Shown here: one piece after another, positions 99 through 33,885 of the stretch
Layout: each line of letters begins with the position of its first letter
Position numbering within the stretch: position 1 is the first letter of the stretch
NCBI GenBank assembly: GCA_937919825.1
Contig: CALFPA010000023.1
Coordinates: 1-38,707, forward strand
Origin: an uncultured Spartobacteria bacterium
GTDB taxonomy: Bacteria; Verrucomicrobiota; Verrucomicrobiia; Chthoniobacterales; Terrimicrobiaceae
DNA: 38,707 bases
Reading direction: 5' to 3'
Made by a program: the position numbers and the translations under genes
The notes under the pieces: generated by a model
What the model was told of the DNA's origin: nothing
Database searches by the model: none
The model's input: only the letters and a program-made list of their open reading frames with translations

Positions 99-632
99 TC
101 AATCAAAACGGACTCTGGGGTTCATTTCGCGGGGGGAATACCAAGTGATATCGAACTCCTCCTTGAGGATTTCTTTCATTCGCCGCCAGACCAGATGGCA
201 GTGACCCATTTCGTAGGGCTTTCCAACTTCCTCGGAGGCTCTCATTCCCGCCTCCTTGATTACCCAGGCATAGACCGGATCATCACTGATCGGGTCGTAG
301 AGAATTCCACTGCGAGCCTCGCCACTCTGGCTTCTGCGCTGCGCCAATTCACGCCGCCGATTTAGTTCGGGATCTGGCGTCGGCACCAGCGGTGAGTCTC
401 TGACTTTGGGCTTTCGATTCCGCAACACCTCCAGCGCGGCTTCTCGTTTCTTTTCGCGATGAGACCTCCAGAGCAAGAAGGGCAAAATCAAAATGCCAAG
501 TGGGAGGAGAAGCGGACTGAGCGCCACGACGACTACTAGTTTTAGCAACGCACGGACCTTCTGAGCGCGAGCGGAAGGAAATCGTATCCGACGGCGAGGG
601 CGTTGACTGTTGAGATAGCGAGGCCAATCCAT
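99..632 (-). CDS. Small membrane protein of unknown function
   Basis: I do not recognise a family. The 177-residue product has a basic N-terminus (about residues 1-27, many Arg and Lys), one long hydrophobic stretch (about 28-56, rich in Leu, Val and Pro, enough for one or two membrane passes), and a charged C-terminal part ending in an acidic and aromatic region (about 110-177). This predicts a membrane-anchored cytoplasmic domain. The ATG is at the 632 end and lies inside copy 1 of the 192-bp repeat, so the leader and first codons (Met-Asp-x-Pro-Arg-Tyr) are the same sequence found upstream of the ClpP-like gene. It is the third minus-strand gene of the accessory segment next to tRNA-Phe. 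A link to the ATPase/ClpP-like pair is inferred only from position and the shared leader. Confidence 0.7.
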   Translation of the reverse strand: MDWPRYLNSQRPRRRIRFPSARAQKVRALLKLVVVVALSPLLLPLGILILPFLLWRSHREKKREAALEVLRNRKPKVRDSPLVPTPDPELNRRRELAQRRSQSGEARSGILYDPISDDPVYAWVIKEAGMRASEEVGKPYEMGHCHLVWRRMKEILKEEFDITWYSPREMNPRVRFD

Positions 633-811
633 GGCTTAAAATGAAAACTCAATTTGGCGGAAGAACTCAGGTTTGGAGCGGCTCTGCGGAAGGATCTGCC
701 GGATGTGAGCGACGAGCTTTTGGATGAATTTTGTAATCATTTCGCCCGGCATCCTAAAACAGCTGGTAGGACAAAAACTGGGGGACCAGTTTTTTTCTTA
801 AAAAAAGTTTT
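620..811. repeat. 192-bp direct repeat, copy 1
   Basis: This stretch aligns without gaps to 2743-2934 (constant offset of 2123), with about 11 substitutions, or roughly 94% identity. It contains the start codon of the membrane protein at its left end and a perfect hairpin at 773-794. A short plus-strand open frame runs through both copies from a TTG (654 in copy 1). The substitutions between copies do not favour silent positions, so I do not call it a gene. In the minus direction each copy reads terminator, then leader, then gene start, so it looks like a duplicated regulatory boundary. Confidence 0.9.
773..794. terminator. Perfect hairpin with T run in repeat copy 1 (likely terminator)
   Basis: A 9-bp stem (AAAAACTGG / CCAGTTTTT) with a GGGA loop is followed by T-rich sequence on the plus strand. 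Because the stem arms end in A and T runs, it is symmetric and could terminate in both directions. It lies downstream of the minus-strand AAA+ ATPase gene, where a terminator would be expected, and is repeated exactly at 2896-2917. Confidence 0.6.
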
Positions 812-845
812 CGCCTCACAGGCGGACAAGGCGAATCCAGTAAAA

Positions 846-868
846 GGCTTAAATACATAGCTTAAGCC
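846..868. terminator. Short hairpin downstream of the AAA+ gene
   Basis: GGCTTAA (846-852) and TTAAGCC (862-868) form a 7-bp inverted repeat with a 9-nt loop, between the ATPase stop codon and repeat copy 1. There is no T run on the minus strand, so it may be an mRNA-end stabilising hairpin, not an intrinsic terminator. Confidence 0.3.
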
Positions 869-905
869 AAGTTTACCCCCCCGGAGTTGCAGCGCCACTA
901 CCGCC

Positions 906-2021
906 TCATGCAGCAAAACCGATTCTTGGCTTCTCGCGTGACTCCATTGGGTCGGAATTGAATATCTCGGCGAGAGAATAATCTGACTGCAGAGGAAGAG
1001 ACCGAGAGGCTTTATCGGCAATACGATGAGCTGCTACTGAATCGATACGCGAAAAAACATGATGGGCGACAAGACGCCCGGGCCTCATGAATGCAGCATC
1101 GATCTCCGTGGATTGACAATTGATCGAGCATACGATGTGGAGACGAAGGAAGTCGGCCAACAATCCGTCAGTGATATTTAGGATGGCTCCCACTTGCCTC
1201 TGGTTGTCCGTTCCACGGGTCATCAAAGCACCCTCGGCGTCCTCCAAAACGCATATAAATCGGAGTGAGGGATGTGCCGCATGCTGCTGACTCCAAAATC
1301 CGATAAACTCTGGATTTGAGAGCACACCGGCGTTTGCTGGTGGGATAAAGTAAAAGCGGTGGGTGTCCTTCAGCAGGAACATCAGGTGACGCAAATAGGA
1401 GGTCTTGCCTGTGCCCGGAGGGCCCTCAAACACGGTTAGACCTGAATTTTTTTGAGAAAGCTTTTCGACATAGGAGTCGGTCCATTTCGAGAATCCCGCA
1501 CCGTAATGGAGATCGAGATTTTCTGCATCGAGCGACAAGCTTCCGGAAAGCTCAACGACCTCGGTATCGATGTTATCACCGGAATTTGTGATCAGGTGGT
1601 AGCAACCTCTCGCTTTATTTCTAGGGCGGGCGTAGTCAACCCGAAAGGCGAGCGCAGCTTTCTTGGCTGTTTCCAAGTCCGGGGCAAATGATGAGAGGCG
1701 ACCATTGTCTATGTAAATGAAAACGCCCGCGTCCTCCTCGATAATAACATCCCGCCATTCCAATCCCCGCATCGATTCGCCGCGATCGGAACGCAGGATG
1801 CGAGGCCCTTTGTCGGCAAGGATGCGGTCGTGTTCCCACTCCTCGCGTTGCAGGAGAAAGCGATGCATGGGGGAAGCTCCATAGGCCGCCAAGACGGGCA
1901 ATGGGGCATCACCGAGATAATTAGCAGAGAATGACGGCATCTGTCCGAGATCAATCTGACAACGAACATACGGCGACTCAGATGGCTTAACGAGGGGCGG
2001 TTGGCTATTGGATTTTGGCAT
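906..2021 (-). CDS. AAA+ family ATPase (BCS1/FtsH-like AAA core)
   Basis: A 371-residue ATPase. The first 190 residues are a family-specific N-terminal region I cannot assign. The AAA core follows: Walker A GPPGTGKT at 200-207, a YFIPP segment near 224-228, a Walker B-like strand ending in LEDAE (about 259-263, with the acidic pair in the order Glu-Asp), an NITDGLL segment (282-288), a sensor-1 Asn near 301, and MRPGRL (312-317), which supplies the arginine finger. This matches a widespread group of stand-alone AAA proteins related to BCS1. Their substrates are mostly unknown; energy-dependent remodelling of a protein partner is the family-level expectation. It follows the ClpP-like gene by 36 bp on the same strand, so the two are probably cotranscribed and may act together. 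No transmembrane segment is evident. Confidence 0.85.
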   Translation of the reverse strand: MPKSNSQPPLVKPSESPYVRCQIDLGQMPSFSANYLGDAPLPVLAAYGASPMHRFLLQREEWEHDRILADKGPRILRSDRGESMRGLEWRDVIIEEDAGVFIYIDNGRLSSFAPDLETAKKAALAFRVDYARPRNKARGCYHLITNSGDNIDTEVVELSGSLSLDAENLDLHYGAGFSKWTDSYVEKLSQKNSGLTVFEGPPGTGKTSYLRHLMFLLKDTHRFYFIPPANAGVLSNPEFIGFWSQQHAAHPSLRFICVLEDAEGALMTRGTDNQRQVGAILNITDGLLADFLRLHIVCSINCQSTEIDAAFMRPGRLVAHHVFSRIDSVAAHRIADKASRSLPLQSDYSLAEIFNSDPMESREKPRIGFAA

Positions 2022-2057
2022 TATAAAAATCGATTTTCGGCGTTGAACTGCCGGTTT

Positions 2058-2738
2058 TCAAGCAGCACCGGATCCCCCTTTTTTTGAGCGAAGACGCCGT
2101 GTTTTTTTGGATGAGTCCGCAGGGGGTGGAGGATTGTGGATAGCGTTGAATATCTCGGCTAAAGGATCCGGATCACCGACCACATCCAGAATTCCGAGAT
2201 CGTGGAGATCTTTGGGGAAAACGCGCAGACCGGCAATTTCAGCGACTGGGATATACTCATCCATGTGGACCATGATACTTCGCAGATCTGTTTCGTGTGC
2301 CGGCTCCTCGGCAAGAACTGCGCCTGGGTAGTCCCGATTTGTTGCTCGTGCTTGTCGTGAGAAGGAAGAAATGCTCGATACCTGAATCCATGCGTCAGGC
2401 CTGATTGAGCGGGTATTCCCAGTCAACCATACGAGGATTGATCCATCAAAGAGGCAGGTATGGGAATGGATGTGAACTCTGAGCGTGGAAGGGCGCGCAC
2501 GAAGTTCGTGAAAGATCATGAGAGCAGTATCCGGCATGAGTGAACCCGGTCCCGTTAGATCAATCTGAAGCGAGGAATCTGCCCCTGACAGAATGCCTCG
2601 CAGGCTGGCAAGGAGACGAGCTGGATTTTTATCGGCAAGATTGAGGATGTGCATATCTGGGAGCCTTAAATATTCCCAGGGAGGCGATGTGGGTTGGTTT
2701 GGCCGGGGCGAAGTCGGCTCTTTAGCGGACAATTGCAA
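2058..2738 (-). CDS. ClpP/crotonase-fold-like protein lacking the catalytic serine
   Basis: A 226-residue product. The central part resembles ClpP: a beta strand and turn with LTGPGSLMPDTALMIF (about 62-77) where ClpP has its SPGGS loop and helix, then a strand and a helix with FDGSILVWLTG where ClpP has ASMGAFLLAAG. The position of the catalytic Ser is Phe here. The segment DLHDLGILDVVGD (about 178-190) resembles the AxxxGLIDxV end of ClpP and SppA proteins. The C-terminus is Pro-rich and then strongly basic. I infer a non-catalytic ClpP-fold protein. The start used is TTG at 2738. An ATG at 2755 inside repeat copy 2 is out of frame, and an internal ATG gives a protein starting at residue 29. 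The AAA+ gene follows at 36 bp. No family name is certain. Confidence 0.65.
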   Translation of the reverse strand: MQLSAKEPTSPRPNQPTSPPWEYLRLPDMHILNLADKNPARLLASLRGILSGADSSLQIDLTGPGSLMPDTALMIFHELRARPSTLRVHIHSHTCLFDGSILVWLTGNTRSIRPDAWIQVSSISSFSRQARATNRDYPGAVLAEEPAHETDLRSIMVHMDEYIPVAEIAGLRVFPKDLHDLGILDVVGDPDPLAEIFNAIHNPPPPADSSKKTRRLRSKKGGSGAA

Positions 2739-2742
2739 TATC

Positions 2743-2934
2743 GAGGCCGATCCATAGCTTAAAATGAAAACTCAGTTTGGCGGAAGAACTCAGGTCTGGA
2801 GCGGCTCTGCGGAAGGATTTGCCGGATGTGAGCGAGAAGCTTTTGGATGAATTTTGTGATCATTTCACCCGGCATCCTAAAACGGCTGGTAGGACAAAAA
2901 CTGGGGGACCAGTTTTTTTCTGAAAAAAAGTTTT
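2743..2934. repeat. 192-bp direct repeat, copy 2
   Basis: Second copy of the 620-811 repeat, immediately upstream of the ClpP-like gene. It includes a copy of the membrane-protein start codon (ATG at 2755-2753, minus strand) that leads into only a short frame here, and the same hairpin at 2896-2917. Similarity stops sharply after 2934. Confidence 0.9.
2896..2917. terminator. Perfect hairpin with T run in repeat copy 2
   Basis: Same 9-bp stem and GGGA loop as at 773-794. In this copy it lies upstream of the minus-strand operon and downstream of the tRNA-Phe gene, so it could stop transcription coming out of the tRNA gene before the ClpP-like gene. Confidence 0.5.
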
Positions 2935-3155
2935 ATGGACTCCCAAAGGCATTCGTCCCACACCCGTGCGAAGGGTCTGACTCATCACTCGCTAATCAAA
3001 TTCTTTCGCCGAATCGCTGCAAACGAGCTGATGGGAGAATGCGAAATACCATCCATGGAAAATGGCGGAAATCAGAAGACAATTTCCCACTTTCTTTCCC
3101 ACTTTGACTGATTTTGACATGAGCATCCCCTTAAATGCTTGATAAAGAGGGGGAG
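2935..3155. other. Gene-free spacer between repeat copy 2 and tRNA-Phe
   Basis: No convincing gene. It contains a short near-repeat on the plus strand (TTTCCCACTTTC followed by TTTCCCACTTTG, about 3086-3109) and an AT-rich run towards the tRNA. The tRNA 3' end faces this spacer, so it is where an integration scar would be expected, but I found no second copy of the tRNA 3' end in the window. Confidence 0.4.
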
Positions 3156-3228
<73 letters not shown>

Positions 3229-23497: not shown

Positions 23498-26400
23498 ATG
23501 CGCCATTTTGCTTACCTCCCGTTATTTGTAGCCTTCTTCGCGCTCTCGACTTCTTGCGATGCCAAGAAACCGGAGACGCCCGTTCCCCAACCCGCTCCGG
23601 CCCCGATTGGTAAAATCGAGGGCTCCTTGGATTTTGCGGATGTCGCCGTTGGCGCAACGACCGCGAAAAATTTGACGATCCAAAATACGGGAACCGCCCC
23701 TCTCGTGATCTCCGCGATTTCGTATCCGGAAAGTCTCTCGGGCCACGACAAACCCGCGACGGTGGAGCCCAATGGCACCCTGGTGATCCATGTCAAATTC
23801 TCCCCCGCCAAACCTGGCAACTTACAAGGTGCTGTCGTCATCACATCGAATGGCGGCAAATTCGAAGTCCCTGCGACCGGCACCGCGAAGGAATTATCCG
23901 GCATCCTCGAACTCGCCAAAGAAACGCCCTTTGAGCAAGTCCCCGTGGGCGAGAAGGCGACCGGCGCGTTCATTCTGCGCAACACCGGCAACGCCCCGCT
24001 CACCGTCAGCACCATTTCCTACCCCGAGGGATTCACCGGAAATTTCAGCGGTCAGATCGAGCCCGGTCAGGAACAAAAAGTCCCTCTGGTTTTTTCACCC
24101 AAGGAGCCCAAGACCTACTCAGGCGAAGCCACCGTGAATCTCTCTGTCGGCCGAGGAACGACCGCGTTGGAGATCACTGGAACCGCCGCAGCCCCCCTGC
24201 CCGCTCCCAGGGGAATGGCGACCGTTCTGTCAGGTCAACTTCCACCAGGCTCCGCCCTCGCTGGCACGGAGGTGAAAACCTTTCACATCGGCACGCATGA
24301 GGTGACCTGGGGCGAATGGAATGCTCTGCGCGAATTCGCAACAAAAAATGGTTACGACCTTCCCGCCGCTCCGGAAGGCGCGACTCCAAACCGCCCCGTG
24401 CGCCAAATCACATGGCACGACGCGGTGAAATTTTGCAATGCCCGCAGCCAACAGGAAAATCTCCAACCGGTTTACGCAGTAAATGGCGAAGTTTACCGTT
24501 CAGGAGTTGCCACCCCCATCGCAAACTCCGAAGCGAATGGCTATCGCCTCCCCACCGAAATCGAGTGGGAATGGGCCGCGCGCGGCGGAATCAAGTCCGT
24601 CGGGGCCAGCATCAGCGGAGGCAAGGAATTGGATGCAAATTCTCCCACCGAACTCACCGGGTGGGTAGACCGTTGGCGCTTCAGTGGCGGCGAGGATGTC
24701 GACGCCGTGGCATGGTATTGGGAAAATTCCGCCGCGTCGGGCGAGGATTTGCTCGATGGACGAGGCACCGCTCCGGTTGGAACGAAAAAGCCAAACGAAC
24801 TCGGGATTTTCGACATGAGTGGCAATGTCGCCGAATGGTGTTGGGACGAGGCGGATGGCGGCTCGCGCCGAGTCCGTGGTGGGGCTTGGTTCGGCTCGCC
24901 CGCCGATTGCGAGGTGTCTCGCCGGAGTTTCAATGGACCCGAAAATCCCTTCGATTTCCTCGGGTTTCGCATGGCCCGAAATCTCGCGGATGCTGCCCTG
25001 CTCGCCCAACAACCCACGGCAGAACCTGCGCTCGATTTTTCCACCAATGCCACGCTACCCAACGCCACCACGGGCATGGATTACACAGCGAAAATCGAAC
25101 TCGCCGGCGGAAAATCCCCTTATGCCGTCACCCTCAAGCCAGGCGCAAAACTCCCCGAAGGTCTGAATTTCAAAGATGGCGAAATCCAAGGCACGCCAAA
25201 AGCCGCAGGCGACTTCCGCGTTACCCTCGTCGCTACGGATTCCTCGAACCCGGTGAAAAATTCCATCGAGCGGGAATTCATCCTGCGAGTCACTCCCTAC
25301 GGCCTCGCGATCGATCCCGAACCCGCCGCAATCGCCGCAAAATACAACGAACCCCTTTCCGTAGCCTTCGCCGCACTAGGCGGTTCCTCGCCATATCGAT
25401 GGACCACCGTCGGAAAGCTACCGCGCGGGCTCAAGCTCGACCCCCAACTTGGCGAACTCACCGGAAAGCCCTTGATCGGAGGCTCAACAAACATCGTTCT
25501 ACGCCTCCGCGACGCGAAAGGCTTTGAGGCGTTTCGTGTGGTTCCTTTGACCATCTCCGTGGTGCCAATCCAAATCACCCCCAACCCCGAAAATCCATCG
25601 TCCGGCAATGTGAATATGAATTTCTCCCGGAGCTTCACACTTACCGGCGGCGTGCCGCCCTACTCGGTCAAACTCGCCGAAGGATCCACCCTCCCGCAAG
25701 GTCTCTCGATTTCCACCAGCGGATCCACCGCACGGATCAAAGGCATCCCCACCGAGACCGGAAATTTCTCCGTGACCCTGGAAGCCTCTGATTCGGTAAA
25801 AACCTCCTCCTCCCTGCCAGTCGAGATTTCCGTAGCTCCCTACAGTCTCGCGATCACCGAACCATCCCCCGATCAACTCGCCGCAAAATATCTCGAGGAT
25901 TACACAATCACTCTCAACGCCACCGGCGGTCGCCCCCCGTATTACTGGGCTGTGGTTGGCAAAGTCCCTCCCGGCCTGAGCGTCAAGGCCCTCACAGGAA
26001 TCTTCTCCGGCAAACCCACCGCCGCCGGAAAATTCCCCATCATCATCAGGGTGTCGGATGTAAATAACATCATCGTTTCGAGAAATGCCACGATCGAGGT
26101 CAGCACCTCGCCGCTCAGCCTCACGCCAGATCCTGCGCAAGCTCCCGCTGGCACGACCGGTCTCGCGTATAACTGGAAGATCGTCTTTTCTGGCGGCGTT
26201 CCGCCATACACGCTCAAGCCCGCACCGGACACTACCTTGCCAGAAGGCCTTTCTGCCTCGGTCTCTGGGTCCACCGGTAAAATCTTGGGAAACCCCGCCA
26301 CGCCCGGAACCTTCCCGCTCTTTCTCGAAGCCACCGACACACTGGGTGAAAAAGCCAACCTGCAAGCGCAGGTGACTGTCACCCCCTACGACCTCGCCAT

Positions 26401-28333
26401 CGCCCCCGAGTCCACCCAAAAGCTCGTTGGGAAATTCAAGCAGGCCCTTGATGTTCCACTCACAGCCACCGGCGGCAAACCGCCTTACAAATGGTCTATC
26501 ACCGGTTCACTCCCGAATGGGGCTTGGCTCAGCAGTTCCTCCGGAAAGCTGGCTGGAACCCCCTACACCACCGGCGAATTTCCAATCACCCTAAAAGTCA
26601 CCGACTCGAACAACATCTCGGCAGCGGCCGATGGCAAACTCGTCATCACCGCCGACCCGCTCCAAATTGTCGTCGATGCCACCGAATCCCAGCAGGCCAC
26701 ATCCGGCCTCGCAACCCGCCGCACCTTCGCGATCCAAGGCGGAGTGCCGCCTTACTCCTTGAAGCTGAAAGAAGGCAGCACGCTGCCACCGGGCATGGAA
26801 CTGGACTTCACCGGCACCAAGGGGGCAATTGAAGGAAAACCAGCGGAGCCTGGAAACTTCTCATCCATCCTTGTCGCGACCGACTCACGGGAAGAATCCA
26901 CCGAAACAAAAATCGACCTCTCCGTTTCCGCCTACGACCTGCAAGTCTCCGAGACGCTCGCTGCCCCGATCACGGCAAAATACGATCAAACTCTCGCCGT
27001 CACGCTCGCAGCCAATGGCGGCAAGCCCCCTTATGTTTGGAAAATCGAGGGCAAACTCCCAGTCGGCATCCTCCTCAAGTCGCAAAGCGGCTCACTCACC
27101 GGAAAACCTCAAACCACTGGAGAGTTCCCCATCACCTTCAAAGTCACGGACGCCAATCGCCTCTCAGCCACACGCAACGGATCCATCGTTGTCAGCGCCG
27201 AGGAATTAAAAATCGAAACCGCAACCCTGCCCCCTGGTAAAAAAGGAGTGCCCTACAGTCAAAAAGTCGAAACCTCCGGGGGAATTGCTCCCATCACACT
27301 CGGAATCGAACCCGGCACAGCCCTCGCGCCCGGACTCAATCTCGGAGAGGCTGGAATCCTCGGCACTCCTGAAGCCGGTGGCTCTTTCTCGGTTCGCATT
27401 GTGGCAATCGATTCCAAAATGACCTCCACCTCCAAGGATTTTACTCTGCTCGTTGAGGATCCCACTCCCGCACCAACTCCCGCACCAACTCCCGCACCAA
27501 CTCCCGCACCAACTCCCGCACCAACTCCGACCCCGACTCCAACGCCTGAACCCACCCCCACACCAGAGCCTTCTCCAACACCCGCTCCAACACCCGAGGC
27601 CCAACCCACTCCGCAGCCTCAAGCCGAGGCTCCTGCGCCGACCGGTTCGACTGTCTTGGTGAAGGGCGGCGAACTCCCCATCACCTCGCCCCTTGGAAAA
27701 CAACCCGTCGGCCAGTTTGTCATCGATCGCACCGAGGTGACCTTGGCCGAATGGAAAAAAATCCAGACGCAAGCCGACGCCCGCGGTTACGACATCGGCA
27801 AGGTCGGCAATGCTCCGGATGACGCCCACCCGGTCACCAATGTCAGTTGGTTTGATGCCATCAAATGGTGCAACCTCCGCAGCGAACTCGAAGGTCTCCA
27901 ACCCGCCTATGTCATCGACGGCGCGGTGTTCAAAACCGGCGAATCCGCCCCCTCTCTGGCACCCGGCGCTAATGGTTACCGCCTCCCCACCGAGACCGAG
28001 TGGGAATGGGCCGCTCGTGGCGGTGCCTCGTCCAAAGGCAACACCTACAGCGGAGCCAATGACCCCAACGCCGTGGCGTGGTTTGCAAGCAACAGCGGGA
28101 AAGAAAAAACAAAACCCGTCGCCGGCAAGTTGCCAAACGAACTTGGAGTTTACGACATGAGCGGCAATGCCCGCGAGTGGGTATGGGATGCCCACAAGGA
28201 CTACCGCCGCGTTCGTGGTGGCGGGGCTGAAGATCAATCCTTCGACTGCTCCGTTTCCGTTTCCGATTTCAACTACCCAAACAAACGGACGCCAGAAACC
28301 GGATTCCGAACCGTTCGCATACCCGCGAACTGA
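23498..28333 (+). CDS. Large exported protein: two FGE/SUMF1 domains flanking nine Ig-like repeats
   Basis: A 1611-residue secreted protein or lipoprotein (signal peptide 1-19, Cys20 after a non-standard LSTS lipobox). Two choice-of-anchor-D-like beta domains (about 38-130 and 135-225) repeat the pattern [17 protein letters not shown] and [17 protein letters not shown]. The first FGE domain is about 239-498 ([36 protein letters not shown]). Nine putative-Ig (He_PIG type) repeats follow (about 518-1322), alternating between two forms, one with GGVPPYS and one with GGKPPYxW and GxFPI. A Pro/Thr/Ala linker (about 1322-1385) leads to a second FGE domain (1386-1611; [20 protein letters not shown]). 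Neither FGE domain has the two catalytic cysteines, so they are probably binding modules. It follows rph by 63 bp; function unknown, probably at the cell surface. Confidence 0.88.
27464..27523 (+). repeat. 12-bp tandem repeat in the Pro/Thr linker
   Basis: Five units of ACTCCCGCACCA encode the Thr-Pro-Ala-Pro linker between the Ig-like repeats and the second FGE domain, followed by degenerate units to about 27610. The unit is a multiple of three, so changes in copy number keep the frame. Confidence 0.9.
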
Positions 28334-31061: not shown

Positions 31062-31380
31062 CTACTTGCCGGCGGAGAGCCCAAAGGCCGCGTGGGCTAG
31101 TTTGGCGGCTTGGTCGATTTGGGATTCGTCGAGGATGACGGCGATTTTGATTTCGGAGGTGGAGATCATTTGGATGTTCACGCCGCCATTGCCTAGGCAT
31201 TCGAAAAGAGTGGCAGCGACGCCGGAGTGGGAGCGCATGCCGATTCCGACCACGCTGAGCTTGGCGATGCCGCCTTGCTTCAGGACTTTCCCAGCGGCGA
31301 CTTCCACGCCGATCCGTTCGATGACCGGGCCGACTTTTTCCAGTTCTTCACCGGAGACCGAGACCTGAAACCGGCCAGTT
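31062..31380 (-). pseudogene. Remnant of a second aspartokinase (C-terminal ACT region)
   Basis: The minus strand encodes the last part of an aspartate kinase ending GLSAGK, with IAKLSVVGIGMRSHSGVAAT identical to the lysC product. The reading frame continues to about 31370, where a TGA closes it, and the segment before the identical part (VEVAAGKVLKQGG) differs from lysC (KEVEAGEVLKKGG). The first 320 or so residues of the kinase are absent. It is a 3' fragment of a paralogous aspartokinase, parallel to lysC and 1.6 kb from its 3' end. Confidence 0.8.
31081..31276. repeat. 196-bp direct repeat, copy A (aspartokinase 3' end)
   Basis: This stretch matches 32684-32879 inside lysC at a constant offset of 1603 with only 2 mismatches that I can see. 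Similarity falls sharply on both sides: the last codons before each stop differ, and beyond 31276 identity drops to roughly 70% although both sides remain aspartokinase-like. Both copies are in the same orientation and bracket the FGE remnant and the frameshifted FGE gene. Confidence 0.85.
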
Positions 31381-32664: not shown

Positions 32665-33885
32665 CTATTTTCCCTCGGCCAAACCAAAGGCCGCGTGGGC
32701 TAGTTTGGCGGCTTGGTCGATTTGGGACTCGTCGAGGATGACGGCGATTTTGATTTCGGAGGTGGAGATCATTTGGATGTTCACGCCGCCATTGCCTAGG
32801 CATTCGAAAAGAGTGGCAGCGACGCCGGAGTGGGAGCGCATGCCGATTCCGACCACGCTGAGCTTGGCAATGCCGCCTTTTTTGAGGACCTCGCCGGCTT
32901 CGACTTCCTTGGAGATGCGATCGATGACGGGACCGACTTTTTCCAGTTCGTCACTGGACATCGTGAAGGAGATATCCGTCGTGCCGCTGACGGAGACATT
33001 CTGAACGATCACATCGATGATGACATTGGCCTTGGCCAGCGCGGTGAAGATGCGAGAGGCGGTGCCGGGTTTGTCAGGCACATGAGTGATGGTGACCTTG
33101 GCTTGCTTGCGCTCCAGGCTGATTCCGCGCACGACGACATTTTCGAGTCCGATGGATTCTTCTTTCACGATGGTTCCCCTGTTGTTGTTGAAACTGCTGC
33201 GCACCTCAAAAGGCACTTTGAATTTTTTGGCGAATTCGACCGATCGGCTTTGCATGACCTTCGACCCGCTGCTGGCCATTTCCAAAAGCTCGTCATAGGC
33301 GATGACATCGATCTTCCGGGCGTCCGGCACCACTCGCGGGTCGCAGGTGTAAACACCATCGACATCGGTATAAATCTCGCACATGTCGGCCTTGAGCGCC
33401 GAGGCAATGGCGATGGCGGTGAGGTCCGAGCCGCCGCGGCCGAGCGTGGTGATCTGGCCTTCGTCGGTCTGGCCCTGGAATCCCGCGACGATGCAGACAT
33501 TTCCCTCATCGAGAAATTTGCGGATCTGGCGCGGGGCGATGTTCGAGATTTTGGCCTTGGTGTGGACTCCGCTTGTGATGATGCCGGCTTGCGCGCCGGT
33601 GAGCGAAACCGCCTTGCCGCCCATGGAATTGATCGCCATCGCGGTGAGGGCGATGGTCGTTTGCTCGCCGGTGGAAAGGAGGACATCCATCTCGCGATCC
33701 GTGGGTGCGGAGGAGACTTCCTTGGCGAGTTTGATGAGTCCGTCGGTGACGCCAGACATTGCTGAAACGACGACGACGACTGAATTTCCCTCGCGCTGGG
33801 TGGCGAGGACTCGGCGGGCGACATTTTGGATTCGTTCGGGATTGCCGACCGAGGTTCCTCCGTATTTCTGAACGAGCAGGGCCAT
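32665..33885 (-). CDS. lysC: Aspartate kinase
   Basis: Phosphorylates aspartate, the entry step for threonine, methionine and lysine. The 406-residue protein has the amino-acid-kinase domain starting LVQKYGGTSVGNPERIQ, the GFQGQT and TLGRGGSDLTA loops and TDVDGVYTCDPR, followed by two ACT domains (from about 265 to the end) that normally bind lysine or threonine. Length is that of the alpha-subunit of Gram-positive-type and many other single-gene aspartokinases. It is last in hom-thrC-lysC, 7 bp after thrC. Bases 32684-32879 are almost identical to the remnant at 31081-31276. Confidence 0.97.
   Translation of the reverse strand: MALLVQKYGGTSVGNPERIQNVARRVLATQREGNSVVVVVSAMSGVTDGLIKLAKEVSSAPTDREMDVLLSTGEQTTIALTAMAINSMGGKAVSLTGAQAGIITSGVHTKAKISNIAPRQIRKFLDEGNVCIVAGFQGQTDEGQITTLGRGGSDLTAIAIASALKADMCEIYTDVDGVYTCDPRVVPDARKIDVIAYDELLEMASSGSKVMQSRSVEFAKKFKVPFEVRSSFNNNRGTIVKEESIGLENVVVRGISLERKQAKVTITHVPDKPGTASRIFTALAKANVIIDVIVQNVSVSGTTDISFTMSSDELEKVGPVIDRISKEVEAGEVLKKGGIAKLSVVGIGMRSHSGVAATLFECLGNGGVNIQMISTSEIKIAVILDESQIDQAAKLAHAAFGLAEGK

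What the first reader, a model, noticed from the sequence alone, without database searches (positions are those of the whole stretch)
619..2938. AAA+ ATPase and ClpP-like protein bracketed by two copies of a 192-bp repeat
The repeat (620-811 and 2743-2934, about 94% identical, no gaps) reads terminator hairpin, leader and gene start in the minus direction. It sits ahead of both the membrane-protein gene and the ClpP-like/AAA+ pair. This looks like a modular cassette in which each transcription unit carries the same boundary element, or a segment inserted by homologous duplication. The three genes could form one undescribed system: a membrane anchor, an ATP-driven remodeller and a ClpP-fold scaffold. 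That functional link is inference from position.
Basis: partly seen in the sequence, partly recalled or inferred. Interest (0 to 1): 0.62.

Follow-up and report, generated by a model that had tools for sequence, protein, structure and literature searches.

The report
Promoter-micropeptide module heading ClpP-like genes
The repeated DNA beside a ClpP-shaped protein and an ATP-driven protein machine is one copy pair of a module scattered through one genus of uncultured Verrucomicrobiota: a conserved promoter-like stretch plus a tiny 34-residue peptide gene that sits in front of a small set of payload genes, an apparently undescribed gene family and regulon.

Summary
The repeat is real (605-811 and 2728-2934; 94% over 197 nt). 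It is not a terminator and not specific to this pair. It belongs to a dispersed module found in 15 of 16 genomes of the genus (2-12 copies each, 7 here). On the minus strand each full copy has a promoter-like block (TCCCCC-N-G-N4-[AT]TGTCC ... TAnnnT, spacing 17) and, about 10 nt on, a micropeptide ORF (MITK-helix-...-QxEFxF). Synonymous codon variation at the invariant Q, E, F, F shows that the peptide is selected. 17 of 18 genes of the membrane-protein family (99-632) follow such a module, and ClpP-like genes follow it in 8 genomes, in six of them with the micropeptide fused to the ClpP-like N terminus. The ClpP fold is supported by structure prediction (Z about 10), but no Ser or His is conserved, so it should be a pseudo-protease; it was found only in this genus. 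The AAA protein is a Cdc48/BCS1-type AAA, wider in the order and in jumbo phages. AAA and ClpP-like genes are neighbours in four species, which supports a link; all three genes together occur only here. Likely a non-proteolytic remodelling pair under a shared, unknown regulator.

The parts
605..811 (-). module copy 1 (promoter-like block, micropeptide ORF, first codons of the membrane gene)
731..785 (-). promoter-like block of copy 1 up to the micropeptide start (R1 hit, E 2.7e-14)
636..740 (-). micropeptide ORF, copy 1: MITKFIQKLVAHIRQILPQSRSKPEFFRQIEFSF*
99..632 (-). 177-aa membrane protein (family 'c8'), starts 4 nt after the micropeptide stop; conserved domain 102-401
906..2021 (-). AAA ATPase, Cdc48/BCS1-like core (Walker A GPPGTGKT, Walker B VLEDAE, RPGRL), C-terminal IGFAA tail
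2058..2654 (-). ClpP-fold protein without conserved Ser or His (ORF open from TTG 2738; probable start ATG 2654)
2666..2755 (-). stub ORF (MDRPRYCN...) that begins like the membrane gene: truncated 5' end carried with copy 2
2728..2934 (-). module copy 2
2853..2908 (-). promoter-like block of copy 2 up to the micropeptide start (R1 hit, E 6e-15)
2759..2863 (-). micropeptide ORF, copy 2: MITKFIQKLLAHIRQILPQSRSRPEFFRQTEFSF*
3155..3228 (-). tRNA-Phe(gaa), upstream of copy 2

Best explanation
The repeat is a dispersed 5' module kept across a genus: a promoter of an unidentified regulator or sigma factor (TCCCCC-N-G-N4-[AT]TGTCC ... TAnnnT), then a nearly leaderless mRNA that begins with a micropeptide gene (amphipathic helix plus QxEFxF) and continues into a payload gene. 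In the window one copy drives the membrane protein and the second drives the ClpP-fold protein and the AAA ATPase; the second copy probably arose by recent duplication of the first, because it still carries the membrane gene's first codons. Shown: module, conservation, coding selection on the micropeptide, fusion of the micropeptide to ClpP-like proteins, predicted ClpP fold without conserved catalytic residues, conserved AAA-ClpP-like adjacency. Inferred: that the block is a promoter, that the micropeptide acts as a docking or targeting peptide, and that the AAA ring works with a proteolytically dead ClpP-fold scaffold to remodel, not degrade, a client (this last part alone about 0.35).
For: Module: R1 finds 2-12 copies in 15 of 16 genus genomes, best E mostly 1e-12 to 1e-17, G004 only 8e-5; TAnnnT exactly 17 nt after TGTC in 49 of 59 copies vs 2% for random TGTC. 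Coding: QxEFxF ORF in 42 of 59 copies vs 0.2% of random windows; Q CAG24/CAA18, E GAG26/GAA16, F TTT28/TTC14, F TTT22/TTC20; in the last 6 codons pairwise differences 0.18/0.24/0.56 by codon position. Payload: 17 of 18 genus c8 genes lie within about 0.7 kb downstream of a module (coordinates); ClpP-like first after the module in 8 genomes, micropeptide fused in six. ClpP fold; no Ser or His among invariant or near-invariant columns. AAA: Cdc48/BCS1-like. Adjacency.
Against: No expression data; no regulator identified; recA promoters in the genus lack the block, so it is no general SOS promoter. TAGGA could instead be a Shine-Dalgarno site. Some copies (C46, C102, C108 of this genome) keep the block but not the micropeptide. 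The AAA C-terminal IGF-like tail is also found in relatives without the ClpP-like gene and in phages, so it is no proof of ClpP docking. Most ClpP-like genes have no AAA neighbour. The coding statistics use ORFs selected for the motif, though the random control used the same criteria.
Confidence: 0.6

Rival explanations
1. The module is a non-autonomous mobile element (MITE/REP-like) that happens to land near gene starts; micropeptide and gene order are by-products.
For: Dispersed, multi-copy, copies of different length, two near-identical copies 2.1 kb apart; some copies lie in repeat-rich intergenic DNA.
Against: Recurrent payload families in the sense direction (c8 13 cases, ClpP-like 8, two others 6 each), micropeptide subtype tracks payload type, amino-acid-level selection; no terminal inverted repeats seen.
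Confidence: 0.15
2. The ClpP-like/AAA pair is an orphaned part of a MoxR-vWA ternary system: in G012 and G013 the same two genes sit in a MoxR-vWA-ClpP-like-AAA-LRV-DUF1810 operon. (This concerns the pair, not the repeat, and can be true together with the best explanation.)
For: Operons in L050 and L051 and, without the ClpP-like gene, L058 of another family; vWA gene present in five genus genomes.
Against: The vWA gene is absent from this genome, which is 99% complete; most AAA relatives have no MoxR-vWA neighbours.
Confidence: 0.35
3. One reading: a terminator-leader boundary element duplicated by homologous recombination, defining a cassette.
For: Recent duplication is plausible (94% identity; truncated membrane-gene start kept in copy 2); a hairpin folds in the window copies.
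Against: Hairpin not conserved in other copies; element genus-wide and in front of other genes.
Confidence: 0.1

Closest known systems
ClpP peptidase family (S14)
   Same: Predicted fold of the first about 95 residues (Z about 10 to ClpP structures); genetic neighbour of an AAA ATPase
   Different: No conserved Ser or His for a catalytic triad; no sequence similarity found to any solved ClpP; partner is not a Clp/Hsp100 unfoldase; found in one genus only
Cdc48/p97 and BCS1 classical AAA ATPases
   Same: AAA core matches Cdc48 (E about 1e-11) and BCS1 (E 1e-8)
   Different: Single AAA domain with an N-terminal part of about 170 residues of unknown fold; conserved C-terminal IGFxx tail shared with jumbo-phage AAA proteins
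MoxR-vWA ternary conflict systems (PMC7159879)
   Same: In two relatives the pair sits in an operon with MoxR and vWA genes
   Different: No VMAP, iSTAND, FtsH or beta-propeller component recognised; LRV/HEAT-repeat and DUF1810 genes instead; vWA absent from this genome
Mycobacterial PafBC (RecA-NDp) DNA-damage promoters
   Same: TGTC-containing element close upstream of a TAnnnT -10 without a -35 consensus (motif letters recalled from memory; a -26 motif is described in PMC11804915)
   Different: Extra conserved TCCCCC block; recA lacks it; no PafBC/WYL regulator tested

Membership tests
ClpP peptidase | ClpP fold | tested here: met
   top 50 all ClpP, Z 9.4-10.6, confident N-terminal part only
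ClpP peptidase | Conserved Ser-His-Asp triad | tested here: not met
   27 invariant and 13 near-invariant columns contain no Ser and no His in 21 members
ClpP peptidase | Works with a Clp/Hsp100 unfoldase carrying an IGF-type loop | tested here: inconclusive
   Neighbour is a Cdc48/BCS1-type AAA whose C-terminal IGFxx tail also occurs without a ClpP-like partner
MoxR-vWA ternary system | MoxR and vWA genes with the pair | tested here: not met
   vWA absent from this genome; met in G012 and G013
Classical AAA (Cdc48/BCS1) | AAA core with Walker A/B and arginine-finger region | tested here: met
Intrinsic terminator / boundary element | Conserved stem-loop followed by a T run | tested here: not met
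   stable stem in the window copy only, of seven sequences folded
MITE/REP-like mobile element | Terminal inverted repeats, target-site duplication | tested here: inconclusive
   None reported by the repeat search over the window copies; empty sites not compared
LexA or PafBC damage regulon | Motif upstream of recA | tested here: not met
   no such motif before recA in the genomes whose upstream region could be read

The most novel reading that the evidence does not exclude
A previously undescribed regulon with its own promoter type whose transcripts start with a short interaction peptide (helix plus QxEFxF, perhaps a sliding-clamp-like or other docking motif), the peptide recruiting a genus-specific dead ClpP-fold ring and membrane proteins to one target under stress, with the AAA ATPase as motor.
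Probability: 0.15. Interest if true: 0.75.

Novelty: new variant of a known kind. Interest (0 to 1): 0.52.

Why it matters
A short coding sequence with an invariant motif that stands before, or is fused to, several payload families is a ready handle on an unknown regulon in uncultured Verrucomicrobiota. A ClpP-fold protein that has lost its catalytic residues and sits beside a Cdc48-type AAA would be a new case of a dead protease chamber kept as a scaffold. Both can be tested with ordinary biochemistry in E. coli.

Tried and rejected
SOS/LexA operator idea (inverted TCCTA...TAGGA): dropped because the inverted repeat is not conserved and recA lacks the motif. Six-codon upstream ORF ([AT]TG TCC TAC ...): considered; a promoter with TAnnnT explains the invariant A31 and T35 columns at least as well; not excluded. 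IGF tail as proof of ClpP docking: rejected, phage relatives share it. Terminator: rejected. Rfam: only the tRNA above a family's gathering score. Viral, phage and plasmid searches for the ClpP-like protein: none; no exact module match in viral contigs. Pfam, NCBIfam, PADLOC: no family for the ClpP-like or membrane protein above cut-off. AlphaFold2 of the AAA protein was poor (mean pLDDT 52.7) and was not used. The beta-clamp hexapeptide resemblance of QxEFxF is from memory only and untested.

Full report
The repeat. Copies at 605-811 and 2728-2934 match over 207 nt at 92%, 94% over 197 nt. Five further partial copies lie elsewhere in the same 2.7 Mb genome, and related copies lie in other genomes of the genus. 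The genus belongs to Terrimicrobiaceae/Spartobacteria MAGs by the titles of the matching records.

What the repeat contains. Read on the minus strand it holds a complete 34-codon ORF in both copies, MITKFIQKL[VL]AHIRQILPQSRS[KR]PEFFRQ[IT]EFSF*. In copy 1 the stop lies just before the start of the membrane gene. Aligned copies from the genus share invariant columns T, CCCC, TGTC, A, C, then A31 and T35 (a TAnnnT), then ATGA. A sequence model (R1) of this 56-nt block finds it in 15 of 16 genus genomes, 2-12 copies each, and more weakly in other families of the order. An exact-type pattern gave the same picture with few hits of the reversed control. Of 59 genus copies, 49 have TAnnnT exactly 17 nt from TGTC, against 126 of 6121 random TGTC sites.

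The micropeptide is coding. 42 of 59 copies have an ORF starting in the expected place with QxEFxF, against 45 of 20,000 random windows. The invariant residues use both synonymous codons freely, stop codons vary, and differences in the last six codons sit mostly in third positions. In six genomes the same peptide is the N terminus of a ClpP-like protein (L065, L066, L068, L074, L075, L076), with the same block upstream. Outside the genus the block-like motif stands before other genes (by inspection a UmuD-like peptidase, a vWA protein, a YbjN protein, small hydrophobic ORFs) without the micropeptide; single hits there may be chance.

What follows the module. The membrane-gene family (c8, no Pfam match) occurs in 11 of 16 genus genomes and in two of the other 61 genomes searched. 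By comparing coordinates, 17 of its 18 genus members lie within about 0.7 kb downstream of a module. ClpP-like genes follow a module in 8 genomes, a KRRxFLSL protein in 5, a DUF4236 protein in 6. In this genome copies also precede an epimerase-like gene (name from inspection only) and a large restriction-helicase gene.

The ClpP-like protein. AlphaFold2 with 21 sequences gives a confident N-terminal part of about 90 residues. All 50 best structural matches are ClpP (Foldseek agrees, with SppA also listed). No Ser or His is invariant or nearly so, and no solved structure is found by sequence profile. So: ClpP fold, probably no peptidase. It was found only in this genus: 14 of 16 genus genomes, none of 42 others in the order sample; 21 loci in the scan of one genome per species, all from MAGs of this group; none in phages, plasmids or viral contigs. 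Besides the module, its neighbours are LysM proteins, often next to LytTR/sensor-kinase genes, or lipid A acyltransferase-like proteins.

The AAA protein. Profile comparison puts it with Cdc48/AFG2 and BCS1. It occurs in 15 of 58 relatives and 10 of 27 genera and has relatives in jumbo phages. Its C-terminal tail (LAEIF...IGFxx) is shared by phage relatives.

Link between the two. In the genus the closer AAA clade occurs in G000, G001, G006, G012, G013. The ClpP-like gene is next to it in the same order in G000, G012 and G013 and divergent about 0.7 kb away in G006; in G001 the AAA gene lies at a contig end and cannot be judged. In G012 and G013 the pair is inside a MoxR-vWA-LRV-DUF1810 operon; the MoxR-vWA ternary conflict systems of PMC7159879 are the nearest described relatives. 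This genome has no relative of that vWA protein.

Origin of the arrangement. Copy 2 still carries a stub of the membrane gene's start (2666-2755), so it was probably copied from a module-membrane gene unit, and the ClpP-like/AAA pair now stands behind it. In G011 a ClpP-like gene is also followed by a module and the membrane gene, tandemly duplicated. That is inference.

Mechanism committed to: shared regulator, near-leaderless transcript, micropeptide as docking or targeting peptide, dead ClpP-fold ring as scaffold for an AAA remodeller. The first part (module, coding peptide, predicted fold, missing catalytic residues, adjacency) is shown; the rest is inferred.

Noticed in passing
window 31062-31307 and 32665-33885: An 81-aa ORF (31062-31307, -) is nearly identical to the C-terminal end (ACT region) of the aspartate kinase encoded at 32665-33885 (-): a partial gene duplication.
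   Followed up: no
window 23498-28333: 1611-aa protein with two sulfatase-modifying-factor-like regions separated by many Ig-like repeats and a TPAP-rich stretch (by inspection).
   Followed up: no
L050, L051, L058: Operons MoxR - CoxE-type vWA (weak SprT-like match) - (ClpP-like) - AAA - LRV/HEAT repeats - DUF1810: a possible undescribed MoxR-vWA system.
   Followed up: partly
L064, L067, L070, L071, L073, L077: ClpP-like genes next to a LysM membrane protein and/or a LytTR response regulator and LytS-like sensor kinase.
   Followed up: partly
L064 7495-8453 and 9623-10577: Tandem duplication (97%) of ClpP-like end, module and membrane gene in G011, spacing about 2.1 kb, close to the spacing in the window.
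   Followed up: partly
L141, L142, L144, L145, L146: In another genus the TCCCCC..TGTCC motif precedes a small hydrophobic ORF (e.g. L141 MNTFIDLLFHALLLLAVFSTGLLIAELRDARTR).
   Followed up: no
window 3155-3228: tRNA-Phe whose 3' end faces module copy 2, about 220 bp away; a possible island insertion site; no integrase was looked for.
   Followed up: no
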